Below are positions 6,820 to 25,497 of a stretch of DNA of 64,000 nt, piece by piece. Made by a program: the position numbers and the translations under genes. The stretch spans positions 1,178,001 to 1,242,000 of the forward strand of contig NC_014253.1 of the NCBI RefSeq assembly GCF_000196655.1, given 5' to 3'. The stretch is from Methanohalobium evestigatum Z-7303. GTDB taxonomy: Archaea > Halobacteriota > Methanosarcinia > Methanosarcinales > Methanosarcinaceae. The notes under the pieces are model-generated. The model searched no databases. It had not been told where the DNA came from and worked only from the letters and a program-made list of their open reading frames with translations. Each line of letters begins with the position of its first letter. Position 1 is the first letter of the stretch.

Positions 6820-6822
6820 TTG

Positions 6823-8980: not shown

Positions 8981-9286
8981 CATCGATTTATACATTTGAT
9001 AATCATACAACATTACCACAACACAACTAATGTTAAGAATTTATATGTTTGTATCATAATTTTTAATAGGTTTTTTAAGGTGATTGTTTTTGTGTGCCGG
9101 TTTATTAATACTCATTTTTCAGTTGCCAGGGTATCAAATAACGCACAAAAAAACCATACAAATTCATGTAATCAACAGCAACGAGGGAATAGGTTGTTGA
9201 TTACAGCGAGCGTGCGTTGGGGAGTTAGATGGGGGTATAGAGGAGCAGGCTAATGGGGAGGAGCCTGTTCCTCTTTTTCATTTTTG
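8981..9286 (+). ncRNA. Candidate structured RNA, element L copy 1
   Basis: A ~300-bp non-coding sequence found again at 11866-12166 and, for its 3' part, at 21985-22160. It has two hairpins. The first pairs GTAATCAACA (9168-9177) with TGTTGATTAC (9195-9204). The second pairs GAGGAGCAGGCT (9240-9251) with AGCCTGTTCCTC (9262-9273) and is followed at once by a T-run, like an intrinsic terminator. Between them lies a conserved GCG...GTTGGGGAGTT segment. The hairpins persist in the other copies, partly through G-U pairs, and no copy has a conserved reading frame, so an RNA is more likely than a protein. It shares AACCATACAAATTCATGTAA with the nuclease-gene leaders, but here the next gene is an antitoxin. 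The rest of the 8833-9383 gap shows nothing else. Confidence 0.6.
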
Positions 9287-9383: not shown

Positions 9384-9632
9384 ATGACACTTATCGATTT
9401 CAGAAGCGCTAAGATTACAAAGAAAGGTCAAATATCAATACCTAAAGAAATAAGGGAACTTGAAAATTTCAAAGAAGGTTCTAAAATCGTGATACTTGCA
9501 TACGATGACAGAATAGAGTTGAGATCCATGGACCAGTTGGATGAAAAAATCTCTACAGCATTGGCAAGTGAAAAAGTCCTCAAAAAAGAATGGGATACAG
9601 AAGAAGAGGATGAAGCATGGAAAGACTTGTAA
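9384..9632 (+). CDS. AbrB/MazE-type antitoxin
   Basis: 82 residues. The N-terminal half is a SpoVT/AbrB swapped-hairpin DNA-binding domain, with the typical KITKKGQISIPKEIRE near residues 10-25. The acidic tail (EEEDEAWKDL) probably wraps the toxin. It overlaps the MazF/PemK-like gene by 16 bp, the usual translationally coupled antitoxin-toxin order. Such proteins neutralise the toxin and repress their own promoter. A TATA-like AAATATT lies about 30 bp upstream, near 9355, and there is no ribosome binding site, so the message may be nearly leaderless. Confidence 0.9.
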   Translation: MTLIDFRSAKITKKGQISIPKEIRELENFKEGSKIVILAYDDRIELRSMDQLDEKISTALASEKVLKKEWDTEEEDEAWKDL

Positions 9633-9949
9633 AAGGAGATGTTGTTGTATTACCATTCCCTTTTTCTGATATGAGTAATTCCAAAAAGAGACCTGCTTTT
9701 GTGTTAGCCAAATTACCAGGAGAAGATATAATTCTTTGTATGATTACAAGCGCGGTCAAAACTGATAATTATTCAATAACGTTAAATGATAATGATTTTG
9801 AATCTGGAACTTTACGCAAAAATAGTAACATTCGGCCAAACAGGATTTTTACCGCTGATAAATCATTAATATTATACAAGGTAGGCCACCTAAAAAATGA
9901 TAAAATAGATGAAGTGGAAAATAAGTTAGTTAACATCTTAACTGGGTAA
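9617..9949 (+). CDS. PemK/MazF-family mRNA interferase toxin
   Basis: 110 residues of the PemK/MazF fold: KGDVVVLPFPFSD at residues 6-18, RPAFVLAKL, the TSAVK strand, and the SNIRPNRIFTAD segment, all family hallmarks. These enzymes cleave mRNA at short sequence motifs. AAAGGAGATG supplies a ribosome binding site inside the antitoxin gene. The pair could act in stress response, plasmid or island maintenance, or phage abortive infection. It sits between the GmrSD-type gene and a TnpB element. Confidence 0.92.
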   Translation: MERLVKGDVVVLPFPFSDMSNSKKRPAFVLAKLPGEDIILCMITSAVKTDNYSITLNDNDFESGTLRKNSNIRPNRIFTADKSLILYKVGHLKNDKIDEVENKLVNILTG

Positions 9950-11860: not shown

Positions 11861-11865
11861 CTATC

Positions 11866-12166
11866 TATCAATTTATACGTTTGATAACCATACAACAGCA
11901 CCACAACAAACTAATTTTAAGAATTTATGTTTATATGTCATAATTTTTAACAGGTTTTTTCAGGTAATTGTTTTTTTGTGCCGGTTTATTAATAATTATT
12001 TTTCATTTGCCTGGGTATCAAATAACGCATAAAAATAACCATACATATCCATGTAATCAACAGCAATAGGTAAATGTTGATTGTAAGAGCGTGTGTTGGG
12101 GAGTTCATTGGGGGTATGGAGGAGCAGGCTAACGGGAAAGTGCCTGTCCCTCTTTTTTATTTTTTC
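11866..12166 (+). ncRNA. Candidate structured RNA, element L copy 2
   Basis: Second copy of the element at 8981-9286. Hairpin 1 pairs GTAATCAACA (from 12053) with TGTTGATTGT (to 12084), keeping the stem through G-U pairs. Hairpin 2 pairs GAGGAGCAGGC with GCCTGTCCCTC (about 12120-12152) and ends in a long T-run. The intervening GTGTTGGGGAGTT is conserved. It lies directly upstream of the first nuclease cassette. The terminator-like end suggests a separate small RNA or an attenuated leader rather than simple read-through. Confidence 0.6.
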
Positions 12167-12199
12167 TATGTTGAGTACTTGCTATGACTTGATTTTTCC

Positions 12200-12305
12200 A
12201 GTTGCTTCTGTTCTCCAAACTACTAGAAAAAATAACCATACAAATCCATGTAATTAACGGCAACAGGAAACTAGCTGTTAATTGCAAGAGCGGGTAATTG
12301 TAGAA
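12200..12305 (+). promoter_or_regulatory. Leader motif with hairpin before cassette gene A
   Basis: Contains the shared string ATAACCATACAAATCCATGT, then a hairpin pairing GTAATTAAC (12250-12258) with GTTAATTGC (12277-12285), then AGAGCGGGTAATTG. The second cassette has the same block at 22200-22300, where the stem is GCAATTAAC/GTTAATTGC, so the pairing is preserved despite the base change. It resembles hairpin 1 of element L without the terminator hairpin. Confidence 0.5.
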
Positions 12306-12397
12306 AATATAGAATCCTGAGATCTTTTGAAATTAACAGGAAAAAGAGCTGCAGGACCTATTACCCAGATTTAAATCGAATATAAAGGAGGATTAAA

Positions 12398-13144
12398 TTG
12401 GAACAAGTAGAAAATAAAGAAAAATTAAAAGATATAACTGTAAAACCGCTGATAGAAAGTATGCTATCGACAGACGATCACAGCACCAAAAAAGATATTG
12501 AAGGTTGCCTGGTGGGTCTGGAACATCTGGCAGCAGATACAATCATTGAACACCTGTATCATGATGGATACAATCAGGACCTAGAAAATATCCTCATACA
12601 GATAGGACAACCGGCTGTTGATTGTCTGTCAGAAAAGATAAACTGTTACCATAATAAATCTGGAGACATCCAGCAGATGCAGTTGATACTGGACCGCATT
12701 GAAGATTGCATCGAAAATCCAGATAGCTCCGATTCGAAGAACCAGAATCAAAAGGTACAATCGTCTGCTTCATCTGGTAATTCTACGCAGAATAATAACC
12801 TGGACAAGATGTCATGGAAAGAACTCGAAGAACTTCTCGTGTCGATGTACAGAGATAAAGGATATCTGGTTGAAAGTGTTGGAACAAAAGACATGGGTGC
12901 GGATTTTGTCATAACTGAATACGGAGTCGAGAGGACCGCGGTTCTTATAAAACATCTAAACCAAGGTCAAAAAGTCACGAGAAATGCTGTTCAGGAAGTT
13001 GCTGCAGCAAAAGACTACTACCAGTGTAACGGTGCCATGGTTATTTCCAACCAGGAGTTCACACAGAAGGCACTAATACTGGCGGAATCGAACGATGTAT
13101 CTCTAATTGGCAGAGAACAGCTGGAAGACATGGTCAATCAGTAA
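12398..13144 (+). CDS. HEAT-like plus Mrr-type nuclease, cassette 1 gene A
   Basis: 248 residues. The first ~100 form HEAT/armadillo-like helices (LIQIGQPAVDCLSEKI). A Gln/Ser/Asn-rich linker follows, then a C-terminal Mrr-like PD-(D/E)xK domain (about 140-248) with GAD (D169), E178 and IK (K185). The usual QxK is LIK here, so the Gln is replaced but the Lys kept. The ending VQEVAAAKDYYQCNGAMVIS is typical of Mrr_cat. The TTG start follows AAAGGAGGATTAAA, a strong ribosome binding site. Mrr proteins cut methylated or foreign DNA. It is about 80% identical by eye to gene A of the second cassette at 22397. Confidence 0.85.
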   Translation: MEQVENKEKLKDITVKPLIESMLSTDDHSTKKDIEGCLVGLEHLAADTIIEHLYHDGYNQDLENILIQIGQPAVDCLSEKINCYHNKSGDIQQMQLILDRIEDCIENPDSSDSKNQNQKVQSSASSGNSTQNNNLDKMSWKELEELLVSMYRDKGYLVESVGTKDMGADFVITEYGVERTAVLIKHLNQGQKVTRNAVQEVAAAKDYYQCNGAMVISNQEFTQKALILAESNDVSLIGREQLEDMVNQ

Positions 13145-13191
13145 TGATACAATATTAGATCAATTTCCGGTTTTAGGCCAGTGTTGTTTGG

Positions 13192-13220
13192 TCCATGCTC
13201 TTGCATGGATTTTATTTTTT
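13192..13220 (+). terminator. Hairpin plus T-run between genes A and B
   Basis: TCCATGC pairs with GCATGGA, followed by TTTTATTTTTT. The same hairpin sits at the same place in cassette 2. Confidence 0.6.
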
Positions 13221-13242
13221 CTGGCTTTGTAATATTAATTTT

Positions 13243-13312
13243 CTCAGTTGTTTTTGCTCTCGAAATTACTGCACAAAAAACCATACAATCCATTGAATTT
13301 TATAAAAATCTA
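13243..13312 (+). promoter_or_regulatory. Leader motif before cassette gene B
   Basis: Carries GTTGTTTTTGCTCTC and then ACAAAAAACCATACAATCCA, the string shared by all six cassette leaders. There is no long stem here, unlike the gene A leader. Confidence 0.45.
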
Positions 13313-13335
13313 AATAAAAAATCGGAGGTAAAAAA

Positions 13336-14502
13336 GTGGACAAAATTGAAAAGATATCCATATAGCCACTTATAAAAGAATTAACTGATGAAAATAACGA
13401 TATGGAGGACAAAGAAGAAATCAAAGAAATTCTTGTTAATCATGGAGAAAAAGCAGTAGAACCTCTTATTAATTGTCTCAAGGAAACATACCCGAATTTG
13501 GATATAAAACAAACATTGGCTGGTATCGGAGAACCTGCAGTTGCACGGGTTATAGAAGAAATGAGAAAAGATGATAATCCAGAGGAATTGGTACTGGAAC
13601 TTTTAAATATTCTTGAGGATACAGATTCTGCAGCACTATATGTATTCCACGAACTTAGAGACAAACTGCCAAAATTAGATATGCTTCATCACAGGAATAT
13701 CATATTTACTTACAAACTAATATTAAATAGGCACAGCAGGTATACTGCAAATCTGATTATTGATTATTTGCATTATGATGAAAATGAAATAATCAAAAAA
13801 CCTTCACAAGTCGTGTATTTCCGGGAACCTGTGAAAGAAGAACGCGATATCCTCATAGAAATATTCCAGGAGTTAGAACCTGAAGCAATCGACCCGATTA
13901 TTAATGGTCTCAATGAAAATTGGAGTCCTGAAATAAAGGAACTGCTGGAAGATATGTTGAAAGACGAAGATTTTGAAGACCGACTTCAAGAATACCTAAA
14001 AAATACAGAAGACCTTGAGTTCAAATGTCAAATCGCTGAAATAATCCATGAAATAGGGAATACACCATTAAAAGATCTATTGCAACTTATGAACAGCGAT
14101 GTTGAGGATGAAGAATTACCCGACAATCCGGATAAACTGACACCTAAACAACTTGAGCTGGCAGTATGCAAAATCTACAGGGAGAAAGGGTATTACGCTA
14201 TTAGAACTAAAAATACCAATGATAAAGACCAGGGTGCAGATGTAATATTGACCAAACTTGGATCAGAACGTGTTGCTGTGCAGGTTAAACAATCTGGTTC
14301 AAAAGTGGGAAACAGTGCAGTTCAGGAAGTGGTTGCTTCAGTGCGGTATTATCTTTGCAATTCAGCGATGGTGGTTACAAATAATTACTACACACCTGAA
14401 GCTGTTGACCTTGCAAATGCAAATGATGTTAAATTGGTAAACAGAGATGAACTTCGAAACCTGATAATATCGCATTACAAACTGTTTAAAAAAGAAGATT
14501 AA
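13336..14502 (+). CDS. HEAT-repeat Mrr-type nuclease with in-frame TAG, cassette 1 gene B
   Basis: Read from GTG 13336, preceded by a strong GGAGGTAAAAAA ribosome binding site, the frame gives MDKIEKISI, TAG at 13363-13365, then PLIKELTDENND and on to 14502 (389 codons). Gene A reads KDITVKPLIES at the same place, so the TAG falls on a lysine codon. If TAG is read as pyrrolysine the whole gene is intact; if not, translation could start only at ATG 13402, which has no good ribosome binding site. HEAT/PBS-lyase-like repeats (LAGIGEPAVARVIEEM) span about 25-260. The C-terminal Mrr domain has GAD (D302) and canonical QVK (Q316, K318). Its counterpart at 23324 has no TAG. Confidence 0.8.
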
Positions 14503-14624
14503 ACAATTGATTCAATCTATGGTAGATAATATTAACCATTGGTTGTTTCGATGTGGTTTTTGATCTATTTCCATGTTTTTCTTTTTTCATTAATAAATAT
14601 TTAATACAGTTTTTCGATTCCCGG

Positions 14625-14690
14625 AGATTTTGCTCTTTTTCAGAATTCAGCGATAAAAGGACCATACGAACTCATGTAATTTATTTACTC
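14625..14690 (+). promoter_or_regulatory. Leader motif before cassette gene C
   Basis: GATTTTGCTCTTTTTCAG, then AGGACCATACGAACTCATGT, matching the other cassette leaders. Ends about 15 bp before the GGAGGTTAAAG ribosome binding site. Confidence 0.45.
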
Positions 14691-14715
14691 AGGAATAAAA
14701 ATTGGAGGTTAAAGT

Positions 14716-15075
14716 TTGAAAACAAATTATCAGAATTTTGAATTAATATCCTGGATAAAATTGCTGCAGGAAGTGGAAATATACTATAAAACTAGAGGAT
14801 ATCATGTCGAAAGAACTCCAGGTACAGATTCTGGAGCAGACCTCATAGCAACTTTTTTAGGTGTCGAAAAGGTAGCTGTTAAGATATGTTCCAGAGGTTT
14901 TGTTTTATTTTCATCCGTCCATGAAGTTTCTTATGCTAAAATCTATTATCGATGCGACAGAGCTGAAGTAATAAGCTTGGGATTTTTCAGCAAAGACGCA
15001 GAATTACTGGCTAAAATTATCGATGTAAAATTGATAAATAGATATGAGCTTGAAAAGATTATTGAAAAATATTGA
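14716..15075 (+). CDS. Stand-alone degenerate Mrr domain, cassette 1 gene C
   Basis: 119 residues consisting of an Mrr-like domain alone. The acidic residue is kept (SGAD, D42), but the QVK motif has become VKIC (K56, I57, C58), so the catalytic Lys and Gln are both lost. The same change occurs in the cassette 2 copy. The fold otherwise looks intact: VHEVSYAKIYYRCDRAEVIS and the DVKLINRYELEKI end. It probably binds DNA or a partner nuclease without cutting. The TTG start has GGAGGTTAAAGT upstream. It could regulate or protect against genes A and B; that is inference. Confidence 0.8.
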   Translation: MKTNYQNFELISWIKLLQEVEIYYKTRGYHVERTPGTDSGADLIATFLGVEKVAVKICSRGFVLFSSVHEVSYAKIYYRCDRAEVISLGFFSKDAELLAKIIDVKLINRYELEKIIEKY

Positions 15076-15097
15076 ACTGGCTGGATGGTATTAAAAG

Positions 15098-15350
15098 TAA
15101 ATCTCTGCTCTCCTTTTTTACCCTAGAGTATAGAACCAAAACCCTGAAGCTAATGTTTAAAATTGAAATAAAGTTTTTAGAATCAAATTATCCAGTTTGA
15201 TTTTTTTTGATTTACTGTAGATTTTGAAATCGTTTAGCCGGGTTCAAATATAATTTTGTCTGGATTTTATAACTATTTTATTTAATTTCGATTTTTGATG
15301 TTACATGAAACATCAAAATTTCAGAATTATCATAATCTCTGTTCGGTTGA
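15098..15350 (+). repeat. Intergenic repeat D, copy 1
   Basis: AT-rich block after gene C, recurring at 17555, 20045 and 25012. Shared pieces are TCCAGTTTG, TGATTTACT(A/G)TAGATTTT and CCGGGTTCAAATATAAT. It holds the inverted repeat TTTTGATGTT-ACATGA-AACATCAAAA (15293-15318), with perfect 10-bp arms. The remaining bases to 15483 show nothing else. Confidence 0.7.
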
Positions 15351-15483
15351 AAATAAATAGGGATTAATCCTCTATTTGAATCTGGATGAAAAACCGATAA
15401 GTTACAGAGAGTGCATTACAGGTTCCTATGAGTAAAATAAGCAAAGAGGAAGTGGAATCGCTTCCTCAACTGTTCATGTTTAA

Positions 15484-17118
15484 TTATCTCTGTTCTCTTC
15501 TCAGGAACAAAAGCATGGCAATTCCAAGCACTCCAATCAGAAGTACTGGATTCGTAGCAGGCACACCAGCCCAGTGGTCGTATCCTAATCCAGAATAATG
15601 ACTTGGGTCGCTGTCACTTATCTGACTTGTTGGGATTTCGGCACACAGGTCATCCTTGTATTCAGCAGTGACATTACCAAGATTGGAATATTGACCTGAC
15701 TGAGCGCTACCAGTTTTAGTGCAGACCATCGATTCACCAGGTTTAAGAGAGCTATTTGGACATGAAATTTCTCCCAGTTTATCGTCAGTGACTGTAATAT
15801 TGTATAAAATGACACTGCCGGTGTTTGTGATATTATACGTCCAGGTTACCTGGCTACCCATCTGGATGGTTGGACCTTCTGGTTCATCCGCATCTTCACC
15901 GTTGGTGTACTTTTCGATATCAACGGATGCATTGATTGTAAGTGGCAGAGAATCGTTATTGTTTTCAGCGATGTTAAACTCTGAATCACAGAACCCATCG
16001 TTGTTTGCATCGGTGCAGGTTTGACTAAATCCAGTACCATCAGGATGTGCCCAGTAGTTGCCACCTATGTAAGGTCCACCCACAATGTTTGGACCTGGTG
16101 TCTTGGTGATGTTCCACTTATTAACTGTGACGGAACTGGCAGTAATTCGTGTATTGTTCTCATTGTTGAAGATATTGTTATATATAGTATTGTCCTCGCT
16201 AGAAGGAAATTCAAACCCAAGATCAGTGTTATTACAGATGATATTACTTTTCAATATGTTATTTTTGCTTACAAAAATACTGATACCAACATTTTTGTTG
16301 TTTGATACAGTATTGTTATTCAGTTTGTTGTTGTCAGAACCAGAAATACCGATACCATCATCTTTGTTGTTTAATACAGTGTTGTTATTCAGTGTGTTAT
16401 TGCTACTGTAATCAGAAAGAATAATGCCTTCTTCTCTGTTGTACGATACAGTGTTGTTGTTCAGTGTATTATTGTTGCTTTCAGAAAAGTAAATGCCTTC
16501 TCTGTTGTACGACACATTGTTTTTGTTCAGGTTGTTGTTGTTGGATTCATAAAGACTTATACCATCAACGTTGCTGTTAAAATTCGCATTATTGTTATTC
16601 AGTTTATTGCTACTGGAATTATAAAGATTAATGCCGTCATTGTTGTTATTTGATGCGGTGTTGTTATTCAGTGTGTTAATATCGGAATTTAACAAGCGAA
16701 GACCTTGATAATTATTAGATATTTTATTGTTGCTGATATTGTTGTTCTTAACTTCATCTAGGAAGATTCCTGCCTTCTCGAAAACTGTAGCACCTGTTAT
16801 ATTGAAACCACTGATCGTAACATTATCTCTGGTAACGTTAAATACATGATCGCTTGTAGAAGCAGCCTGAACTTTAGTATCATCTGGATTCCCGGATTCC
16901 GATAGGATGGTTACTGATTTGTTAACGTCCACATTTTCTGTATATGTTCCATTATATACAATAATGGTGTCACTGTCACTTGCTGCGTTTATTGCATTCT
17001 GTATTTTCTGGTAGTTCATACCAGGATCATCATCCACAGTGATAGTATCCGCTAATGCTGTGCCTGAAAACATTATCATTAAAACGAAAGTTATTACAAG
17101 ATATAGTTTGATTCTCAT
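15484..17118 (-). CDS. NosD-like beta-helix surface protein with C-terminal sorting-type anchor
   Basis: 544 residues. A signal peptide (about 1-23) precedes a right-handed beta-helix made of roughly twelve ~22-residue Asn-rich turns (NNTLNNNTVSYN and similar), as in NosD/PbH1 proteins. A DUF11-like beta domain (about 410-500, VTWTYNITNTGSV) follows, then ATNPVLLIGVLGIAMLLFLRREQR, a short motif, one membrane helix and a basic tail. This end looks like an archaeosortase-processed signal. It is probably a surface adhesin or carbohydrate-binding protein. It is transcribed opposite to its neighbours and lies between the two cassettes. Confidence 0.85.
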   Translation of the reverse strand: MRIKLYLVITFVLMIMFSGTALADTITVDDDPGMNYQKIQNAINAASDSDTIIVYNGTYTENVDVNKSVTILSESGNPDDTKVQAASTSDHVFNVTRDNVTISGFNITGATVFEKAGIFLDEVKNNNISNNKISNNYQGLRLLNSDINTLNNNTASNNNNDGINLYNSSSNKLNNNNANFNSNVDGISLYESNNNNLNKNNVSYNREGIYFSESNNNTLNNNTVSYNREEGIILSDYSSNNTLNNNTVLNNKDDGIGISGSDNNKLNNNTVSNNKNVGISIFVSKNNILKSNIICNNTDLGFEFPSSEDNTIYNNIFNNENNTRITASSVTVNKWNITKTPGPNIVGGPYIGGNYWAHPDGTGFSQTCTDANNDGFCDSEFNIAENNNDSLPLTINASVDIEKYTNGEDADEPEGPTIQMGSQVTWTYNITNTGSVILYNITVTDDKLGEISCPNSSLKPGESMVCTKTGSAQSGQYSNLGNVTAEYKDDLCAEIPTSQISDSDPSHYSGLGYDHWAGVPATNPVLLIGVLGIAMLLFLRREQR

Positions 17119-17317
17119 TTATGAACCCCATGTCTAATTTCTGAATGGTTAGTAAATAATCTTAGATGGTATTGTCTGTTTGAATATATTATATAACATT
17201 GGAAACAATGTTTCTAAAATTAATTTAGAATTAATCGTAGCTGATTCACTCTTTCATGAAATGATTCAAAAAATACAGATCAAAAAAGGAAAAGAGTAGT
17301 AGAAATGGTATATGACT

Positions 17318-17475
17318 AATTATACCTTATTTCTGCTCTCTTCTCAGGAACAACAAAATTGCGATACCAAGTATGCCTACCAGCAGTACAGGATTTGCTG
17401 TTGTTACACCAGCCCAGTGGTCATATCCGAAATAATGACTTGGATCGCTGTCATTCACCTGGATTCTTCAAATTC
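17318..17475 (-). pseudogene. C-terminal remnant of a second NosD-like surface protein
   Basis: On the minus strand the frame reads NDSDPSHYFGYDHWAGVTTA and then NPVLLVGILGIAILLFLRRE, ending in TAA: nearly the last 45 residues of the gene at 15484. Upstream the frame breaks. The repeat plus downstream sequence suggests tandem duplication followed by deletion. Confidence 0.8.
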
Positions 17476-17489
17476 GGCAGTAACCCTGA

Positions 17490-17770
17490 TATATAGAAAC
17501 TAGCTTGAAACAATTATCGAAAAATATTGAGCTGCCTGGATGATGGATAAGGTCGAGGATATTAGATGAAATAAATAAATCCTCTTCTCTATCTTTTAGT
17601 CTAAAGTATAGGATCAAAACCCAGAAGCAAATGTTTAAAATTGAAATACTGTTTTTTAGAACCGGATCATCCAGTTTGTTCTTTTTGATTTACTATAGAT
17701 TTTGAAACCGGACAGCCGGGTTCATATATGATTAAGTCAAAATTTCAAGACTGATTTATTCTAGTTTTGT
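17490..17770 (+). repeat. Remnant of cassette gene C tail plus repeat D copy 2
   Basis: Bases 17498-17540 (AGCTTGAAACAATTATCG, then AAAAATATTGAGCTG) match the last codons and stop region of gene C at 15045-15085. They are followed by the same downstream block (GATCAAAACCCAGAAGC, TTTACTATAGATTTTGAAA, AGCCGGGTTCA). This suggests a third, mostly deleted cassette. From 17770 to 17905 I see nothing further. Confidence 0.6.
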
Positions 17771-17905
17771 ATTATTGAGAAAATTTTTCTATAAACCTTG
17801 TTTATCGAATAATCGAAAATATCCATTAACCTTTTTTGAATGCGTATATTTTCGGATATTGTACATTACAAATGACCTATCAGTTTTTTGAAGATTACTT
17901 ATAGA

Positions 17906-18868
17906 TTAGTAAACCACATCCTCCACATGTCTTCTTTGTGATCTTGGAAGTGGCTGACCGTACCCGATACGAAGTAACAGTTGAGGGTGTTTGTTGCCGA
18001 TTGATAATATTTCTTGTAATTTTTCTTTGAGTTGAGGAATTTCGCAGGGCTGGTTAAGATGTGCATTTTTGATGTTCAAAGCAGTAGCATTTAGAACAAG
18101 TCGTTCAAAACTGCGGCCTATATCAACCCATGCAATTTTACTATTATCATCTGACATGATTACTAATAGAGAAGAAGAACTTCTGATATTTATTTCATCT
18201 TTTTTTGATTGAGCTTTGTCAGTTGCAATATATTTTATAAAAAATCTGCCAAACCAACTGGGTATAGATGGCGAACCCATCGTTTTTGAGCTAAGACCAT
18301 CAAGATGTTTTTTTGTATCAGAATCATTGAAACGTATCCACGAGGTTAATTCCTTTTTAAAGTTCTCATCGTTCATCTGTATCTTGTTACCCATCCTGAC
18401 AAGGTCTATTATAGCTTCTATTTTATCATCATCAGTAATAAAAAGTGAAGATATTCCATCCTCCATTATTACCGACTTGAGCTTATCTAGATCGTCATCA
18501 GGGATGGAGTTACCATCATATTTACTTCTGGTGGTCTGCCTTTGTGGGATTGCATCGTACAATATATCATTTTCTTTTATACCATCAGTATCTAGTACAA
18601 CAGAAATGAAATCTTCACCATTCCCGTCAAAAGAATATTCCACATTAGTACTATAACCATTATGTTCAGCTACAATCAAAAGATTTTCCAGTGCACATCC
18701 AAGACTAATAAACAGTTCACGGTCATCAGGGTCTACAGCTGGAAGCCTTCTAGAATAATCTGGAAAGATTTTGATCTGGTTTTTCTCTAGATAGAATTTC
18801 CATGGTTGGGTATTATGTCCTGAAGGGGCAAGTGTAGCATAACGAATTATTTCATTAATATTCTCCAT
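17906..18868 (-). CDS. Nitroreductase-family (Acg-like) flavoprotein
   Basis: 320 residues. The opening INEIIRYATLAPSGHNTQPW is the FMN-binding signature of the nitroreductase fold. LFISLGCALENLLIVAEHNG and DIGRSFERLVLNATAL match the paired helices of Acg-type, duplicated nitroreductases. The C-terminus has LLLRIGYGQPLPRSQRR, a common family ending. Such proteins bind FMN and act as NAD(P)H-dependent or sequestering flavoproteins; the substrate cannot be told. The gene stands alone, with no operon partner. Confidence 0.85.
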   Translation of the reverse strand: MENINEIIRYATLAPSGHNTQPWKFYLEKNQIKIFPDYSRRLPAVDPDDRELFISLGCALENLLIVAEHNGYSTNVEYSFDGNGEDFISVVLDTDGIKENDILYDAIPQRQTTRSKYDGNSIPDDDLDKLKSVIMEDGISSLFITDDDKIEAIIDLVRMGNKIQMNDENFKKELTSWIRFNDSDTKKHLDGLSSKTMGSPSIPSWFGRFFIKYIATDKAQSKKDEINIRSSSSLLVIMSDDNSKIAWVDIGRSFERLVLNATALNIKNAHLNQPCEIPQLKEKLQEILSIGNKHPQLLLRIGYGQPLPRSQRRHVEDVVY

Positions 18869-19004
18869 TTTATCTTCCTTATGACCTTATATTTTTGGAT
18901 CTACAATATAAAATGCTATCTAATCCAGAGAATTTCCACACTAAAACAAGGGATATTATTTACCTGATATAGAATTAATCACTCCAATGATTTCAATTTT
19001 CATG

Positions 19005-19871
19005 TTAGCTCTTTCTCGTAAAATTCGATATATCCTTTGAACCATAACCCAAAAACCCTCTGGTCATAGTGATAAGTATTATAACACTTATAAGAAGCAC
19101 CCCTACCTGTATTATCAGGAGGTTTGTATAATTTGGACCAAAGACAATTTCATCGGCAAAAGGCACCAGATGTATAGTAGCAGTATTGAAACCTCCATGT
19201 AACAACATCATGAGTAGAACACTTCCAGTATGATTGAATATCCAGGTGTAAAAAAATGTATATAACACAATTCCAACAGCTGTAAGTAACACTAATCCTC
19301 CAAGAATTATAGGGTCAGTGATACCGTGAGATGACCTTGGATCTACGAAGAATACTGGTATGTGCCAGAAAGCCCAGAGAATTCCCAGTAAAAATGTTGC
19401 ATTCAGGGGACCATATTGTTCTTGTAATCTGGGAAGAGCAAAACCACGCCATCCGGGTTCTTCTCCCAAACCTGCCAATAAAGAGAGACCTATGAGTGTG
19501 GGAATGAAAGTCAAAACAGGGTCAGGTAATTTTGAAAGCAATGGTTCATAACCCAGGAGTATAAACCCTAAACTGGTTGCACCAAATACAAAGATTGGAA
19601 AAACTAAGGTTATTATCCACCATTTGAGAGGTACACGCCAATGAATAATACTGCCAACCCATTCGCGGATCGGTCCACCAGTATACCATATAATCAATCC
19701 GCCTGCAATTGCAGGACCGAATTGAGCTACCAACAGGTTCAGTCCACCAAAACTTTCATCGATATCCAATATTGACGGGAGAAAACCGAGCCATGATATC
19801 ATGTAGGCTAAAAGGAAAAATGATACCACAGGATGATGTATTACCCTCTCTCGTATACTTTTTTGTTCCAT
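19005..19871 (-). CDS. CPBP-family (Abi/CAAX-like) intramembrane metalloprotease
   Basis: 288 residues with about eight hydrophobic segments. The family motifs are visible: EEPGWRGFALPRLQ (EExxxR, about 141-154), FWHIPVFF (the FxxxH-type motif) and LLHGGFNTA (HxxxN/B). Members are membrane proteases related to Rce1; in prokaryotes some protect against bacteriocins or tune surface proteins. Start ATG 19871. The 18869-19004 gap holds nothing clear. Confidence 0.88.
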   Translation of the reverse strand: MEQKSIRERVIHHPVVSFFLLAYMISWLGFLPSILDIDESFGGLNLLVAQFGPAIAGGLIIWYTGGPIREWVGSIIHWRVPLKWWIITLVFPIFVFGATSLGFILLGYEPLLSKLPDPVLTFIPTLIGLSLLAGLGEEPGWRGFALPRLQEQYGPLNATFLLGILWAFWHIPVFFVDPRSSHGITDPIILGGLVLLTAVGIVLYTFFYTWIFNHTGSVLLMMLLHGGFNTATIHLVPFADEIVFGPNYTNLLIIQVGVLLISVIILITMTRGFLGYGSKDISNFTRKS

Positions 19872-20044
19872 TTTACCTACTTACTTAATGAATTTTAACA
19901 ATAACCATTAGAAAATAAAAAACTAAAAAACAGATTAGAATAATTTATCTAACCTTATATAAGGTTTCTTCTTATTTCCGGGTTATCAAGAATCTTTCAT
20001 TTTCAATTTTGTTGTTTAAAACCGCCTTTTAAACTGATGATTGA

Positions 20045-20314
20045 TATGTTTTTACATTTTTAGTCAATAACATAGTATCAAAACCTTGCAATATATTTTT
20101 TGAACTGAAATCAGCTTTTCTGAATAGTATCTTCCAGTTTGTTCTTTAGCATTTACTATAGATTTTGAAAGAGGTTCACCGGGGTTCAAATATAATAATA
20201 GTCGGTTTTGTTACTATTCAATTTCAATCTCGATTTTCAGTGTGACATGACACATTGAAATTCTCAAATACTTGAAAATTAGATCTCTCCAGTCTTTTTT
20301 GATTCGTATTTAAA
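20045..20314 (+). repeat. Repeat D copy 3 with ACATGA inverted repeat
   Basis: Shares long stretches with 25012-25290, including TTTACTATAGATTTTGAAAG and TCTCAAATACTTGAAAAT. The inverted repeat TTTCAGTGTG-ACATGA-CACATTGAAA is at 20235-20260. It lies directly upstream of a promoter. Bases 19872-20044 are AT-rich with nothing else recognised. Confidence 0.7.
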
Positions 20315-20315
20315 A

Positions 20316-20366
20316 CTTTGAAAACCTGTTGACCGGTTCGCTCAATATCGATTAATCTTATAAACC
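20316..20366 (+). promoter_or_regulatory. Promoter P1 of the LDCIK-family gene
   Basis: CTTTGAAAACCTGTTGACCG followed by ATTAATCTTATAAACC; the CTTATAAA (20357-20364) is a good archaeal TATA box. The same arrangement precedes the paralogues at 25.5 and 26.3 kb. Confidence 0.65.
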
Positions 20367-20491
20367 TTCTAATCAATCTTCTTAATGGGACTTCTAAAAA
20401 GAACCTTTAAAATTGAACCAGCTTAAACCAATAATACCGGTTCGTACTGGGGTATTACAAGTCTATTGGAATCAAAAACGGAGATGTTAAC

Positions 20492-21001
20492 ATTCAAATC
20501 AATACTAATTCTGAATCTACAATAAATCTGGACTGTATAAAAAGAATTAACAACAGAGGAGAATTCCTCGCAGCGCCGAATGACATTATGAAAAGATTGT
20601 GTCCTGAAACCTACTCTCGTCTGCACGGCGGCTGGTTCAGAAAGGTGGACAACCTGAATCAGGAATATACGAATGGATACTCGATCATTGGACAATTTTA
20701 CAGCGACAGAAGGCGCCAGTGGCTGGCTCCAGGATTATATGTCGACTGTTCAAAAAACGGGGATAACAAGAAAAAAGTTATCTACCATACACTTATAAAA
20801 TTAAATTTTGACGGTACAGTTGAGCTGCTGGAACAAACCCGCAACAACCCGAGCTGGGCAACTGATCTGTGGGATCCGATAGAAAAGTTTTTGCCAGAAT
20901 TCAAACCCGATAAAGAGATTCTCCATGAAGAAAAAACGTACCTTGAATGCCGACTCGATGAAATAAATCACAAATTGGAGAATCTAGATAAGAATCAATA
21001 A
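20492..21001 (+). CDS. LDCIK-family protein, paralogue 1 (non-canonical start)
   Basis: Unknown family with paralogues at 25498 and 26339. Conserved blocks are LDCIKxxxxRGEFL, GGWFRKVDNLNQEY, YSIIGQFY, LAPGLYVDCSK, SLIKLNxDGT and WDPIEKFLPEFK, with a coiled-coil-like acidic end. Conservation begins at LDCIK (20528), well before the first ATG (20588). No ATG, GTG or TTG lies in frame between the stop at 20432 and 20588. ATT 20492 follows GGAG by 8 nt and gives 170 residues, the family length. The ATG at 20484 is in another frame, so a frameshift is the alternative. The function is unknown; the conserved Trp and Cys suggest a compact globular domain. Confidence 0.7.
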   Translation: MQINTNSESTINLDCIKRINNRGEFLAAPNDIMKRLCPETYSRLHGGWFRKVDNLNQEYTNGYSIIGQFYSDRRRQWLAPGLYVDCSKNGDNKKKVIYHTLIKLNFDGTVELLEQTRNNPSWATDLWDPIEKFLPEFKPDKEILHEEKTYLECRLDEINHKLENLDKNQ

Positions 21002-21002
21002 C

Positions 21003-21233
21003 TTACATCAAACCATATTCTCTCTTTAACTCATCATGAGTGTACAGTCTCCCCTTTTTGATGTCCTCTAATGCTTCTTCGATACCCTGGATAGCTTCAT
21101 CACTTAATTCATCTTCATCTACAGACATAATTATCAACCTTTCAATAATGGAATTATAAGATTTCTGTGGGAATCTCCGCAAACTGTCTAATTTTTCTTT
21201 AGTCCGGGGTACTATGCTGATTGTAGTACTCAT
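21003..21233 (-). CDS. Antitoxin-like small protein
   Basis: 76 residues. The first half (TTISIVPRTKEKLDSLRRFP, then SYNSIIERLI) is a ribbon-helix-helix or RelB/DUF7557-like DNA-binding region. The second half is acidic and ends DELKREYGLM, as in antitoxins that wrap a RelE/ParE partner. No toxin is adjacent; it lies 140 bp downstream of the RelE/antitoxin pair on the same strand and could be a solitary antitoxin or an anti-addiction factor. The stop codons of this gene and the convergent LDCIK gene are almost touching. Confidence 0.7.
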   Translation of the reverse strand: MSTTISIVPRTKEKLDSLRRFPQKSYNSIIERLIIMSVDEDELSDEAIQGIEEALEDIKKGRLYTHDELKREYGLM

Positions 21234-21373
21234 TTGTGCCTTGAAGTATATTAGAAAAAGTAATATAAAGCATGGAAAAATCTTTGAGTGAGCCCAATGA
21301 TTATCGGTTAAACCTATAGCAGCATATGTATTATGTTATTCAAAAAGGACGTGTCTATGTGCCTGTTCACTCA

Positions 21374-21652
21374 TTACAGCCATTTATATCCTTTCTCTCT
21401 ATGGATAATATCTGTAATCAATATGGTTTCATCTTCAATAGTATATATAACTCGATAGTTACCTACCCTTAACCTATAAAAACTCTTTCTGCCTTTTGTA
21501 CCTTTTAATTTTTTAATATCTGTTCTGGGGTTTTCAGGATATGGTTTATCGCTAAGTGTTTCAATACTTTCTTTGATCCTTGCTTTGGTATTAGAATCAA
21601 GAGACTTGAGATATTTTGCCACTCCTGGATGCAACTTGATGTCATAGGTCAT
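21374..21652 (-). CDS. relE: RelE/ParE-superfamily toxin
   Basis: 92 residues with the RelE layout: LHPGVAKYLKSLDSNTKARI, SDKPYPENPRTDIKKLKGTK, FYRLRVGNYRVIYTI and an EDETILITDIIHREKGY end. The Arg/Lys-rich beta sheet is the ribosome-dependent mRNA-cleaving site. It overlaps the upstream antitoxin stop by one base, the typical antitoxin-first operon. Confidence 0.92.
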   Translation of the reverse strand: MTYDIKLHPGVAKYLKSLDSNTKARIKESIETLSDKPYPENPRTDIKKLKGTKGRKSFYRLRVGNYRVIYTIEDETILITDIIHREKGYKWL

Positions 21653-21843
21653 TAAATATCATCCAGTGATACAAAATACTCTCTATCTTCTAACCGTTTA
21701 TATTGGCGTTCCATGAATGATTCATAATCAATTTCATCCATCAACCGGGTTAGGATTTGGCTGTATGTTTCACCTTTTGAACCATAACTCTTTAGCCTGT
21801 CTCTAACTGCTTTGGTAGTGGGAATTGTTGTTGTTTCTTTCAT
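21652..21843 (-). CDS. Antitoxin partner of the RelE toxin
   Basis: 63 residues. The N-terminal TTTIPTTKAVRDRLKSYGSK resembles the DUF7557/VapB-like archaeal antitoxin family. The acidic C-terminus (DYESFMERQYKRLEDREYFV) would bind the toxin. It is translationally coupled to the toxin. A TATA-like TTTATAAC lies within the 50 bp upstream (minus strand), in AT-rich DNA. Confidence 0.85.
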   Translation of the reverse strand: MKETTTIPTTKAVRDRLKSYGSKGETYSQILTRLMDEIDYESFMERQYKRLEDREYFVSLDDI

Positions 21844-21984
21844 AATTGCTGATAATATTTATCAATATCATTTGTATTTATAACTTGTTATAAGATGTTA
21901 AATTCATAAAAAATTTTCATGGTTTTATATTTTATTTTTTTTATTGTTTTTTTCGTGATGATTCTGCTTGTCGATTTCCATAAA

Positions 21985-22160
21985 TATATTTTTACTATTG
22001 TCTAGGTATCAAAACAACGCACAAAAAAACCAAACAAATTCATGTAATCAACAGCAACGAGGAAATTGGTTGTTGATTACGAGAGAGCGTGTTGGGGAGT
22101 TCAATAAGGGGTATACAGAGGAGCGGGCTAACGGGGGAGTGCCTGGTCCTCTTTTTCATA
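21985..22160 (+). ncRNA. Candidate structured RNA, element L copy 3
   Basis: The 3' half of element L. Hairpin 1 pairs GTAATCAACA (22044-22053) with TGTTGATTAC (22071-22080). Hairpin 2 pairs GAGGAGCGGGC (22118-22128) with GCCTGGTCCTC (22141-22151), followed by TTTTT. The GTGTTGGGGAGTT spacer is kept. It lies just upstream of cassette 2, as copy 2 does of cassette 1. The upstream ~110 bp of copies 1 and 2 are missing or diverged. Confidence 0.6.
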
Positions 22161-22199
22161 TTTTATATGTTGATTACTGGATATGATCAGATTATTCCA

Positions 22200-22300
22200 G
22201 CTGCTTTTGTTCTCTAAACCACTACAAAAAATGACCATACGAACCAATGCAATTAACGGCAACAGGAAACTAGCTGTTAATTGCAATAGCGGGTAATTGT
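22200..22300 (+). promoter_or_regulatory. Leader motif with hairpin before cassette 2 gene A
   Basis: Matches 12200-12305. The stem GCAATTAAC (22249-22257)/GTTAATTGC (22276-22284) is fully Watson-Crick here. It is preceded by ATGACCATACGAACCAATGC. Confidence 0.5.
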
Positions 22301-22396
22301 AGAAAATATAGATTGCTAAACTCTTTTGAAATCAACAGGAAAAAGAGCTGCAGGAACTATTACCCGGATTTAAATCAAATATAATGGAGGATTAAA

Positions 22397-23134
22397 TTGG
22401 AACAAGTAGAAAATAAAGAAGATTTGATAGACAGTGCAGTAGAATCGATGTTAGAAGTAATGTTGACGACTGACAGCCACTGTACCAAAAAGGAGATCGA
22501 AGACTGTTTGATTAGGATGGAACATCTGGCAGCAGATACAATCATCGAACACCTGTATCATGACGGATACAACCAGGACCTTGAAAACGTTCTCTTACAG
22601 ATCAAACAACCGGCTGTCGATTGTCTGTCAGAAAAGATAAAACAGTACCAGAATCGATATGGAGACACCCATCAGCTGCAGTTGATACTGGACCGAATCG
22701 AGGAAAACATCGAAAACCAGGATAGTCCTGATTCGAGGAACCAGAATCAAAGGATACAGACATCTGGTAATTCTCAGCAGAATAATAACCTAGACGAAAT
22801 GTCATGGAAAGAACTTGAAGATTTTCTCGAGTCGATGTACAAAGATAAAGGATATCTGGTCGAAAGAACCGGTATCACAGACATGGGTGCCGACCTGATT
22901 ATAACCAGTTATGGAGTCGAGCGAACTGCAGTTGTTATAAAACATCTAAATTCCGATCAAAAAGTCACAAGAAATGCTGTCCAGGAAGCTGCTGCTGCAA
23001 TGAACTACTACCATTGCAATGGTGCCATAGTCGTTTCCAATCAGGAATTCACAGAACAGGCAGTAAAACTGGCAGAATCGAATGATGTTTCCCTGATTGA
23101 CAGGAAACAACTGGAAGAAATGGTTAGTCTGTAA
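22397..23134 (+). CDS. HEAT-like plus Mrr-type nuclease, cassette 2 gene A
   Basis: 245 residues, collinear with the gene at 12398: HEAT-like N-terminus (QIKQPAVDCLSEKI), Asn/Gln/Ser linker, and Mrr domain with MGADLIIT and VVIKHL in place of QVK. Lys is kept; Gln is Val. The TTG start follows ATGGAGGATTAAA. Many third-position differences from cassette 1 with few amino-acid changes suggest both copies have been under selection since duplication. Confidence 0.85.
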   Translation: MEQVENKEDLIDSAVESMLEVMLTTDSHCTKKEIEDCLIRMEHLAADTIIEHLYHDGYNQDLENVLLQIKQPAVDCLSEKIKQYQNRYGDTHQLQLILDRIEENIENQDSPDSRNQNQRIQTSGNSQQNNNLDEMSWKELEDFLESMYKDKGYLVERTGITDMGADLIITSYGVERTAVVIKHLNSDQKVTRNAVQEAAAAMNYYHCNGAIVVSNQEFTEQAVKLAESNDVSLIDRKQLEEMVSL

Positions 23135-23177
23135 AGAAATAGATTTGGATAGTTTCCGGTTTTAAATCAGTTTTTAG

Positions 23178-23208
23178 TCCATGCTCTATGCATGGATTTT
23201 ATTTTTTC
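23178..23208 (+). terminator. Hairpin plus T-run between genes A and B, cassette 2
   Basis: TCCATGC pairs with GCATGGA, followed by TTTTATTTTTT, identical in design to cassette 1. Confidence 0.6.
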
Positions 23209-23229
23209 TGGATTTGTGAAATCATTTTA

Positions 23230-23290
23230 CTCAGTTGTTTTGTTCTCGAAATTACTGCACAAAAAAACCATACAATCTATTGAATTTATA
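23230..23290 (+). promoter_or_regulatory. Leader motif before cassette 2 gene B
   Basis: TTGTTCTCGAAATTACTGC followed by AAAAACCATACAATCTATTG, nearly identical to 13243-13312. Confidence 0.45.
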
Positions 23291-23323
23291 AAAATTTTAA
23301 AATAAAATTATGGAGGTAAAAAA

Positions 23324-24445
23324 TTGAAATCTAACAATTATAGCAAAGAAGAAATTATATCTTCTTTAGTAGAAAATCTATTGATTACTGAGGAATATAA
23401 TGAGAAAGAAGAAACTAAAGACATACTTGTAGGATTTGGAGAAAAATCAATCAAACCATTGGTTGAAAAATTAGGAGAAGATGTTGGTATATCGAATGAA
23501 AGGGAGATAGGAAGCGTTCTGAAAAGAATAGGCATGCCATGTATACCGTACATCATGAATGAACTTTATAATAAATACTTGCCAAATAGATACTTCACTG
23601 CTTCATTAACTGTTTCAGAAATCATAGAAAGCATCGGCGAACCAGCTGTACCTTATCTGATTGATTACATCTGCGAATATCAAGTACTTGACGGAAGAGA
23701 AGAAAGTTGTCGCAGATTGAGAGAATTCGTATCCTTGCATGAAGAAAAAGCTGTAGATTGTGTGTTAAAAAGATTAAGCAGAGAGTATCTTAATGAAGAC
23801 TGCTGGCAAGAATTGACTAGTATCTTGGTATTCTTGGGAGAAATTTCAGTAGAAAAATTGTTCCAGGGTATAATAAACATCAATCATAAACACATAGACT
23901 ACGATGATGCTGTAAATATTATAACTGAACATGATAATGATGACGCAAAAAATGTCTTGAACAGGTACTTAAAATATGGATCATATGAAGAAAAGCTAAT
24001 TGCAGCCAGAATCCTGGACAAATTCAATGATACTGATGCAGAAAGTACTATACAGGTTCTTTATAACGAACCAGAATCGAAAATGTTGTACGACCTGTAT
24101 AATATATCCTGGGAAGAACTAGAATTAGGCTTGATGAACCTATATGAAAAAATGGGTTATAAAGTGGAAAAAACTCCAAAAAATAGCGACTATGGAGCTG
24201 ACTTTATAGCAACTCAGTGGGGGAGTGAGAGAATAGCGGTGCAGGTAAAGCACCTAAATAATACAACATCGCCTAGTGCAGTTCAGGAAGTTGTTGCAGC
24301 AAAGATGTATTATATATGTTCTAAAGCAGAAGTCGTGAGCACAAACAATTTCAGCAAACAAGCAAAGAACCTGGCAGATATAACAGGAGTAAATCTCATC
24401 GACAGAGATAAGCTCAAATGGTTAATTGAAAAATATAATTGGTAA
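23324..24445 (+). CDS. HEAT-repeat Mrr-type nuclease, cassette 2 gene B
   Basis: 373 residues. The N-terminal ~270 residues are HEAT-like repeats (LKRIGMPCIPYIMNEL, IIESIGEPAVPYLIDYI, EEKAVDCVLKRL). The C-terminal Mrr domain has YGAD (D293), QVK (Q307, K309), and VQEVVAAKMYYICSKAEVVS. It is intact, with a TTG start behind TGGAGGTAAAAAA and no in-frame stop, unlike gene B of cassette 1. The repeat region differs much more from cassette 1 gene B than the Mrr domain does, suggesting that the sensing part evolves faster than the nuclease. Confidence 0.87.
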   Translation: MKSNNYSKEEIISSLVENLLITEEYNEKEETKDILVGFGEKSIKPLVEKLGEDVGISNEREIGSVLKRIGMPCIPYIMNELYNKYLPNRYFTASLTVSEIIESIGEPAVPYLIDYICEYQVLDGREESCRRLREFVSLHEEKAVDCVLKRLSREYLNEDCWQELTSILVFLGEISVEKLFQGIININHKHIDYDDAVNIITEHDNDDAKNVLNRYLKYGSYEEKLIAARILDKFNDTDAESTIQVLYNEPESKMLYDLYNISWEELELGLMNLYEKMGYKVEKTPKNSDYGADFIATQWGSERIAVQVKHLNNTTSPSAVQEVVAAKMYYICSKAEVVSTNNFSKQAKNLADITGVNLIDRDKLKWLIEKYNW

Positions 24446-24548
24446 TTTCTGCTTTCAGGGCGCTGAGTTCCAGAGATTATATAAGAAAATGGCAGGTCAA
24501 TTGTGTACCTGTCCATACTATTTTTTGATCTAATAATTTGATGGTATT

Positions 24549-24610
24549 GATTTTGCTCTTTTTCAGGAATTCGGGATGAAAGAACCATACAAACTCTCGT
24601 GCTTTATTTA
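24549..24610 (+). promoter_or_regulatory. Leader motif before cassette 2 gene C
   Basis: GATTTTGCTCTTTTTCAGGA then AAGAACCATACAAACTC, as in cassette 1. An AGGAGGTTAAAAC ribosome binding site follows. Confidence 0.45.
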
Positions 24611-24639
24611 CTTTAAAATAAAAAAAAGGAGGTTAAAAC

Positions 24640-25005
24640 TTGAAAACAAATTATCAGAATTTTGAATTAATATCCCGAGAAGAATTGTTGCAGGAGGTGG
24701 AAATATACTACAAGACCAGAGGTTATCAGGTTGAAAGAATTCCAGATATAGGTTCTGGAGCAGACCTTATAGCAACGTCTTTAGGTGTCGAAAAGGTAGC
24801 TGTTAAGATATGTTATGGAGGTGTTGCTTCAATTTCAACCGTTCATGGAGTTTCTTCTGCTAAAATCTATTATAGATGCGACAGGGCTGAAATAATATGC
24901 ACAGGATATTTTAATAAAGATGCAGAATTATTGGCTAAAATCATCGATGTTAAATTGATAAACAGGGATGATCTTGAAGAGAGTAACATTACAAGGGGCA
25001 GTTAA
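24640..25005 (+). CDS. Stand-alone degenerate Mrr domain, cassette 2 gene C
   Basis: 121 residues, about 80% identical to the gene at 14716. SGAD (D42) is kept, and the catalytic QVK is VKIC (K56, C58), the same change as in cassette 1. The C-terminus differs (DDLEESNITRGS), probably from a late frameshift. The TTG start follows AAAGGAGGTTAAAAC. Retention of the same inactive motif in both copies argues for a non-catalytic role rather than random decay. Confidence 0.8.
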   Translation: MKTNYQNFELISREELLQEVEIYYKTRGYQVERIPDIGSGADLIATSLGVEKVAVKICYGGVASISTVHGVSSAKIYYRCDRAEIICTGYFNKDAELLAKIIDVKLINRDDLEESNITRGS

Positions 25006-25011
25006 TTAAGG

Positions 25012-25284
25012 TTTCTCTGCTCTACATTTTTAGTTAATAATATTGAATCAAAACCTTGAATCTACTTTTTAGAATTTGGATAATGTTTTCCAAAATAGTA
25101 TCGTCCAGTTTGATCTTTTTGATTTACTATAGATTTTGAAAGATGTTTACCGGGGTTTAAATATAATCATGTCTGGGTTTTGTTATTATTTTATTCATTT
25201 TCGATTTTCAGTGTGACATGACACATTGAAATTCTCAAATACTTGAAAATCAGATCTCTCCAGTCTTTTTTAATTCGTATTCAA
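25012..25284 (+). repeat. Repeat D copy 4 with ACATGA inverted repeat
   Basis: Follows gene C as in cassette 1. The inverted repeat TTTCAGTGTG-ACATGA-CACATTGAAA at 25206-25231 is identical to the one at 20235. The last ~130 bp are nearly identical to those before the 20.5-kb gene. Confidence 0.7.
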
Positions 25285-25285
25285 A

Positions 25286-25336
25286 CTTTGAAAACCTGTT
25301 GACCGGTTCGCTCAATAGTGATTAATCTTATAAACA
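25286..25336 (+). promoter_or_regulatory. Promoter P2 of the LDCIK-family gene
   Basis: CTTTGAAAACCTGTTGACCG then ATTAATCTTATAAACA; TATA box at 25327-25334. Almost a copy of P1. Confidence 0.65.
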
Positions 25337-25497
25337 TCCTTACCAATCTTATTTATGGAAATTTGTAAAATCCCTTTTGTATCGAAATAATCTCTACCAG
25401 TACTATTGAACCTATTTTATCCATTTATCTAACTAATTCTTACAGGGGTTTTACAGAGTCCATATATAATCACCATAAAAAAAACGGTCGTGATAAA

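What the first reader, a model, noticed from the sequence alone, without database searches (positions are those of the whole stretch)
11866..25340. Duplicated three-gene Mrr cassette with RNA-like leaders: candidate new defence system
Two cassettes about 10 kb apart each carry, in order: element L, leader-A hairpin, gene A (HEAT plus Mrr), a terminator hairpin, gene B (longer HEAT plus Mrr), gene C (Mrr only, inactive motif), repeat D. The layout is conserved while sequences have diverged, so the unit is selected as a whole. A trace of a third copy is at 17.5 kb. Each gene has its own leader and ribosome binding site. I know of no described system with this composition.
Basis: partly seen in the sequence, partly recalled or inferred. 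Interest (0 to 1): 0.8.

Follow-up and report, generated by a model that had tools for sequence, protein, structure and literature searches.

The report
Duplicated archaeal nuclease cassette with RNA
A salt-loving methane-making archaeon carries several copies of a three-gene cassette (one apparently working DNA-cutting enzyme and two crippled relatives) beside a small structured RNA, in neighbourhoods full of anti-virus genes, and the working enzyme appears to be read through a stop signal as the rare amino acid pyrrolysine.

Summary
The duplication is real (12.1-15.1 and 22.1-25.0 kb). All six proteins carry Mrr_cat nuclease domains; B adds a HEAT solenoid and A a short helical N-domain. More A-B cassettes lie on the host's second replicon and in a second Methanohalobium genome; none was found in 236 other genomes of the class. 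Corrections: only B keeps the catalytic D...QxK. A has lost the Q/E in all four copies, and C has lost Q and K, yet all three genes are under purifying selection. A1/A2 and C1/C2 are 73-75% identical but B1/B2 only 28%. Element L is a ~130-nt structured RNA gene ending in a terminator, sharing promoter and 5' hairpin with A; it lies before A, before MazEF, after a lone HEAT-Mrr gene and before a NERD-UvrD helicase. Neighbours are Druantia, GmrSD, MazEF, ParE-like toxin and type I restriction genes, so defence is likely but untested. B1 is mis-started: its ribosome-site start lies 66 nt upstream and is followed at codon 10 by an in-frame TAG conserved in three homologues, inside the first HEAT repeat, in a pyrrolysine-coding host. 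Best reading: a mobile, genus-restricted Mrr-type defence module with pseudonuclease partners and a dedicated RNA, its nuclease probably containing pyrrolysine.

The parts
9150..9280 (+). L RNA copy upstream of MazEF (5' hairpin, G-runs, intrinsic terminator)
   Evidence: R1 146.9 bits; 83% DNA identity to the L before A1
9384..9949 (+). MazE-like antitoxin (9384-9632) and MazF/PemK toxin (9617-9949); lies between GmrSD remnant and L-A on the plasmid too
   Evidence: PF04014 8.7e-10, PF02452 7.5e-12; plasmid copies
12035..12159 (+). L RNA upstream of A1
   Evidence: R1 126.9 bits
12234..12397 (+). A1 structured leader: hairpin homologous to L plus a domain closed by GGGUAAU/AUUACCC, then SD
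   Evidence: fold_alignment A7; pair counts
12398..13144 (+). Gene A1: short helical N-domain + Mrr_cat, catalytic Q/E lost (GAD...LIK)
13190..13211 (+). intrinsic terminator after A1
13336..14502 (+). Gene B1: HEAT solenoid + intact Mrr_cat (GAD...QVK); in-frame TAG at codon 10 (13363-13365)
14716..15075 (+). Gene C1: lone Mrr_cat domain, catalytic Q and K lost (GAD...KIC)
15129..15320 (+). repeat D downstream of C1
   Evidence: blastn 78% over 194 nt
17480..17707 (+). remnant: C-gene tail followed by D (the third-copy trace)
20053..20388 (+). repeat D without C, upstream of unknown gene family E (20588-21001)
   Evidence: blastn 86%
22026..22158 (+). L RNA upstream of A2
   Evidence: R1 150.5 bits
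22233..22396 (+). A2 structured leader
22397..23134 (+). Gene A2: helical N-domain + degenerate Mrr_cat (GAD...VIK)
23176..23198 (+). intrinsic terminator after A2
23324..24445 (+). Gene B2: diverged B with intact Mrr_cat (GAD...QVK), no TAG; 28% identical to B1
24640..25005 (+). Gene C2: lone degenerate Mrr_cat
25021..25400 (+). repeat D downstream of C2, upstream of gene family E (25528-25998)
1775..8832 (+). Defence-island context: DruE-like helicase (1775-6598) and GmrSD type IV restriction enzyme (6820-8832)
   Evidence: PADLOC DruE1 2.8e-194; GmrSD_N 3.7e-37

Best explanation
A mobile, genus-restricted Mrr-family (type IV-like) DNA-restriction module. B is the only catalytically complete nuclease: a HEAT solenoid, inferred to bind partner, DNA or trigger, joined to a PD-(D/E)xK Mrr domain. 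A and C are pseudonuclease paralogues kept by selection; I infer that they assemble with B (other PD-(D/E)xK restriction enzymes work as multimers) and gate or position its cut. L is a separate structured RNA gene under the same promoter motif; I infer that it regulates or binds the module. B is translated through UAG as pyrrolysine, so full-length nuclease would need charged tRNA-Pyl. Shown by sequence: domains, motif loss, selection, RNA fold, synteny, TAG conservation. Inferred: hetero-complex, DNA target, defence role, L function, actual pyrrolysine insertion.
For: Mrr_cat hits to all six proteins. B keeps D...QVK in 5/5, A loses Q/E in 4/4, C loses Q and K in 4/4. dN/dS about 0.17-0.34 for A, B and C. 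Cassette 1 lies by DruE, GmrSD and MazEF; the plasmid copy by a GmrSD remnant and MazEF; cassette 2 by a ParE-like toxin gene; lone B3 by a type I-like restriction gene set; one L by a NERD-UvrD helicase. L: 10-bp hairpin in eight divergent copies, 98.8% paired, 5 pairs changed on both sides, 0 of 2000 shuffles as good. TAG: PylS at 366 bits; mtmB control carries one TAG; of 70 ORFs only the three B genes need an extension through a stop to reach an SD start, always through TAG; TAG ends 1 of 55 long ORFs; HEAT homology spans the TAG.
Against: No functional data. No homologue outside Methanohalobium, so co-occurrence with defence genes rests on few loci in one strain plus one 3.9-kb metagenome contig. 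Genes B and C also occur singly. Structure models are weak (mean pLDDT 54 and 64) and Foldseek gave no hit below E 0.001. The three TAG-bearing B genes are close relatives (78-82% identical).
Confidence: 0.5

Rival explanations
1. RNA-controlled toxin-antitoxin-like module: L RNA, made from its own promoter and terminator, restrains a toxic Mrr nuclease (comparable in logic to type III toxin-antitoxin), and the cassette persists by addiction rather than by restricting invaders.
For: L-terminator-protein gene order before A; L also beside MazEF; a divergent L follows lone B3; the cassette is on the second replicon.
Against: L has no tandem-repeat antitoxin units; L also lies beside a NERD-UvrD gene with no Mrr gene seen nearby; A, the gene next to L, looks catalytically dead; in the G001 contig L is absent and the A leader abuts a TnpB end.
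Confidence: 0.2
2. Passenger gene family spread by plasmid integration and IS/TnpB activity: paralogues accumulate in a variable region and A and C are on their way to loss, with no joint function.
For: Orc1/Cdc6-type genes near cassette 2 and the plasmid copy; TnpB inserted in or next to C in two copies; C remnants; single B3 and C4.
Against: dN/dS 0.17-0.34 in all three genes, including A and C with lost catalytic residues; constant A-B-C order; conserved terminator, leader fold and promoter motif.
Confidence: 0.2
3. The TAG in B is a true stop: a nine-codon leader peptide regulates B, which restarts downstream. (This concerns the pyrrolysine step only.)
For: B1 has an ATG 12 codons after the TAG; short attenuating leader ORFs are known in general.
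Against: No SD-preceded restart in any of the three; the B1 ATG is not conserved (the aligned codon of G001 is ATA); HEAT homology and a continuous reading frame span the TAG; the G001 B has a second TAG at codon 299 with the downstream Mrr domain still constrained (dN 0.05-0.08, dS 0.27-0.57).
Confidence: 0.12
4. Housekeeping DNA repair or resolvase function unrelated to defence.
For: The Mrr fold resembles archaeal Holliday junction resolvases (weak hits); Orc1-type genes nearby.
Against: Not conserved even within the family; located in defence islands and on a plasmid-like replicon.
Confidence: 0.06

Closest known systems
Mrr_cat (PF04471) type IV-like restriction endonucleases
   Same: All six proteins carry the domain; B keeps the full D...QxK motif.
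   Different: HEAT or short helical N-domain; tandem with two catalytically degenerate paralogues and an RNA gene.
PADLOC candidate PDC-S02 (single-gene predicted defence nuclease)
   Same: The C-terminal Mrr domains of B1, B2 and B3 match it (1e-13 to 5e-12).
   Different: Only the C-terminal third aligns; here the nuclease is one of three Mrr genes.
Zorya ZorD C-terminal Mrr domain
   Same: Mrr domain match of A, B and C (down to 3e-20).
   Different: No SNF2 helicase part in these proteins.
NA-iREase1 (PF22722), NACHT-associated inactive REase
   Same: Inactive REase relatives; A and B match above the Pfam cut-off, C below it.
   Different: No NACHT ATPase gene seen; A, B and C are standalone genes.
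Type III toxin-antitoxin (ToxIN)
   Same: Small RNA with terminator directly upstream of a nuclease-domain gene.
   Different: No tandem-repeat antitoxin RNA; RNA also beside non-Mrr genes; nuclease domain is DNA-type Mrr.
Pyrrolysine proteins (MtmB, MtbB, MttB; a few transposases and a TetR regulator)
   Same: In-frame TAG in a PylS-bearing methanogen.
   Different: A restriction-type nuclease; the residue lies on a HEAT helix, not in an active site. The 2013 screen that included this species (PMC3639795) names no such gene in its main text.

Membership tests
Mrr-type restriction endonuclease | Mrr_cat domain | tested here: met
   A, B and C all above the Pfam cut-off
Mrr-type restriction endonuclease | catalytic D...(Q/E)xK | tested here: inconclusive
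   met in all B (QVK); not met in A (L/V-I-K) or C (K/R-I/V-C)
Mrr-type restriction endonuclease | N-terminal winged-helix DNA-binding domain of E. coli Mrr | tested here: not met
   B has HEAT repeats (phmmer to alphaRep; solenoid model); A all-helical N-domain; C none
Mrr-type restriction endonuclease | cleaves modified DNA / restricts incoming DNA | not testable with these tools
   needs biochemistry or challenge assay
PDC-S02 | full-length match to model | tested here: not met
   best match of B1 covers only model positions 191-315 of 334
Zorya | ZorA, ZorB and helicase neighbours | tested here: not met
   PADLOC hits limited to the ZorD C-terminal Mrr region; no ZorA/B hit among the neighbours tested
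Type III toxin-antitoxin | tandem-repeat antitoxin RNA | tested here: not met
   no tandem repeat in L beyond a weak 24-nt match at its edge
Type III toxin-antitoxin | RNA inhibits the toxin protein | not testable with these tools
   needs binding and toxicity assays
Pyrrolysine-encoding gene | host has PylS and TAG-bearing mtmB | tested here: met
Pyrrolysine-encoding gene | in-frame TAG conserved, homology on both sides | tested here: met
Pyrrolysine-encoding gene | Pyl residue detected in the protein | not testable with these tools
   needs mass spectrometry
Known Rfam RNA family | match to any of 4227 models | tested here: not met
   no match at E<=1 over 8500-26500

The most novel reading that the evidence does not exclude
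A new kind of RNA-associated archaeal immune module: a dedicated ~130-nt RNA family (L) works with or controls HEAT-Mrr nucleases assembled from one active and two dead subunits, and synthesis of the active nuclease is gated by pyrrolysine, tying defence to the host's expanded genetic code.
Probability: 0.2. Interest if true: 0.88.

Novelty: new variant of a known kind. Interest (0 to 1): 0.6.

Why it matters
If right, it adds a multi-subunit, RNA-accompanied form of Mrr restriction with maintained dead-nuclease partners, and gives the first case known to me of a restriction-type nuclease predicted to contain pyrrolysine. That would make testable whether archaea recruit their expanded code to control immune genes or keep them host-bound. 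The L RNA, found beside unrelated defence genes, is a handle for finding further RNA-linked defence loci in methanogens.

Tried and rejected
Rfam for L and leaders: no hit. Viral-contig scans with A and B: none. Plasmid collection search of cassette 1: none (the host's own records may be left out). L model in 112 genomes of the family: only the genus. HEAT-Mrr cassette in other Methanosarcinia: the Mrr genes inspected are membrane-, TPR-, J-domain-like or other fusions, not this architecture. G-quadruplex folding of L: ViennaRNA with G-quadruplexes enabled gave no change. Trans-pairing of L with the A leader hairpin: disfavoured by inspection, since every L has C-G and every A leader U-A at one stem position, giving a C-A mismatch. 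Sigma-70-type promoter scan is not applicable to an archaeon. NCBIfam: no match for A, B or C except one sub-threshold TIGR01766 hit. A blastn of the window against the plasmid locus inside the last script gave no output, so the MazEF/L synteny rests on reading the translations, the DNA search with L and the sequence. MAFFT misaligned the terminator of the NERD-linked L, so the hairpin arms were aligned by hand.

Full report
Host. The window lies at 1178001-1242000 of contig 1 of a two-contig genome of 2,242,317 + 163,915 bases. From memory these sizes are those of Methanohalobium evestigatum Z-7303 and its plasmid; the only other genome with the cassette and placed in the same genus is a named Methanohalobium MAG.

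The cassettes. The two cassettes are real and co-linear. A1/A2 are 73% and C1/C2 75% identical in protein, but B1/B2 only 28%, so the layout is constant while B has been exchanged or has run away. A third A-B pair lies on the second replicon and a fourth, with a truncated C, in the Methanohalobium MAG; in both, the same TnpB-type element sits in or next to C. A lone B-like gene (B3) and a lone C-like gene (C4) lie elsewhere on the chromosome. The full A protein was found in no other of 238 Methanosarcinia genomes. A scan of GTDB species genomes with B returned the MAG and otherwise matches covering mainly the Mrr domain.

Nuclease status. The motif GAD...QVK is intact in all five B proteins (GGD in B3), is GAD...LIK or VIK in all four A proteins, and KIC/RVC in C. 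Despite that, dN/dS computed is about 0.17-0.31 for A, 0.19-0.24 for B and 0.28-0.34 for C. A and C therefore look like maintained pseudonucleases, not debris. B carries a HEAT solenoid: residues 7-80 match alphaRep HEAT proteins (best whole-sequence E 2.7e-10) and the AlphaFold model shows a helical solenoid (9-252) followed by a PD-(D/E)xK domain (shallow alignment, moderate confidence). Its weak Foldseek hits include MspJI and AspBHI modification-dependent restriction enzymes and archaeal resolvases.

Context. Cassette 1 follows a DruE-like helicase (PADLOC 2.8e-194), a GmrSD type IV enzyme and MazEF. The plasmid copy repeats a GmrSD remnant, L, MazEF, L, A, B. Cassette 2 lies beside a ParE-like toxin gene and precedes an Orc1/Cdc6-type gene; the plasmid cassette also has a Cdc6 C-terminal ORF nearby. 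B3 has type I-like restriction-modification genes within a few kb.

Element L. A covariance model from five near-identical L copies finds them, the A leaders (which share the 5' half), and two divergent copies: one 29 nt after the stop of B3 (40.6 bits) and one upstream of a NERD-UvrD helicase gene (28.7 bits, E 0.0026). All have AAAAAACCATACAA or a close variant, a 5' hairpin, conserved G-runs and an intrinsic-type terminator hairpin with a G-run in its loop. The hairpin is 98.8% paired over eight divergent copies with five doubly changed pairs; no shuffle of 2000 matched it (arms were aligned by hand, and relatedness of the copies is not removed by shuffling). The exact 14-mer occurs eight times in the genome: at B1, B2, B3, three L copies, one degenerate L remnant on the plasmid and one unrelated gene. 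L is therefore best read as a small RNA gene family; its function is unknown and any regulatory or partner role is my inference.

Pyrrolysine. B1's only good ribosome-binding site leads to GTG 13336; codon 10 is TAG. The plasmid and MAG B genes have the same TAG at codon 10, and the MAG B has a second TAG at codon 299 where the others have CAG. Of 70 ORFs of 200 codons or more (stop to stop) in the loci held, these three are the only ones that lack an internal SD start and gain one by crossing a stop, and all three cross TAG, none TAA or TGA. TAG ends only 1 of 55 long ORFs against about 20% of stop trinucleotides in the window. The host has PylS and a TAG-bearing mtmB. The TAG lies in 'SI-TAG-PLIKEL', aligned to the 'AVEPLIKAL' helix of HEAT repeats, so the repeat is complete only if TAG is read as an amino acid. 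The alignment was made with TAG read as lysine; that reading was my choice, but the flanking match does not depend on it.

Verdict. Defence is the best-supported role by context (about 0.6) but is untested; the mechanism of A, C and L is inferred.

Noticed in passing
window 20588-21001, 25528-25998, 26336-26845: Three tandem paralogues of an unknown small protein family (no significant Pfam, PADLOC or NCBIfam match), each preceded by part or all of repeat D, followed by an Orc1/Cdc6-type gene at 26973-28328.
   Followed up: partly
window 34641-34730 and 37405-37509 (minus strand): Short pieces (33-52 nt, up to 97% identical) of repeat D recur near TPR-protein genes.
   Followed up: no
G000 C1:344632-344712 (L119 2560-2713, minus): Divergent L-like RNA with very G-rich single strands and a GGGGG terminator loop upstream of a NERD-UvrD helicase gene.
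   Followed up: partly
G000 C2:117121: Degenerate remnant of an L-like element (promoter motif and hairpin 5' arm only) on the second replicon.
   Followed up: partly
window 10160-11164; L021 2128-3330; L025 3716-3896: TnpB/Cas12f-like genes repeatedly inserted at or next to the cassettes; the same TnpB type disrupts C in the plasmid and MAG copies.
   Followed up: partly
L025 codon 299 of B (2947-2949): Second in-frame TAG right before the catalytic GAD in the MAG copy, where the others have CAG.
   Followed up: partly
window 11261-11850: Fragment of a dockerin-like surface-protein tail and of an IS630-type transposase between TnpB and the L of cassette 1 (read by eye).
   Followed up: no
window 15484-17118: NosD-like beta-helix surface gene with internal 69-72-nt repeats between cassette 1 and the C-tail remnant; its tail is duplicated at 17327-17431.
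   Followed up: no
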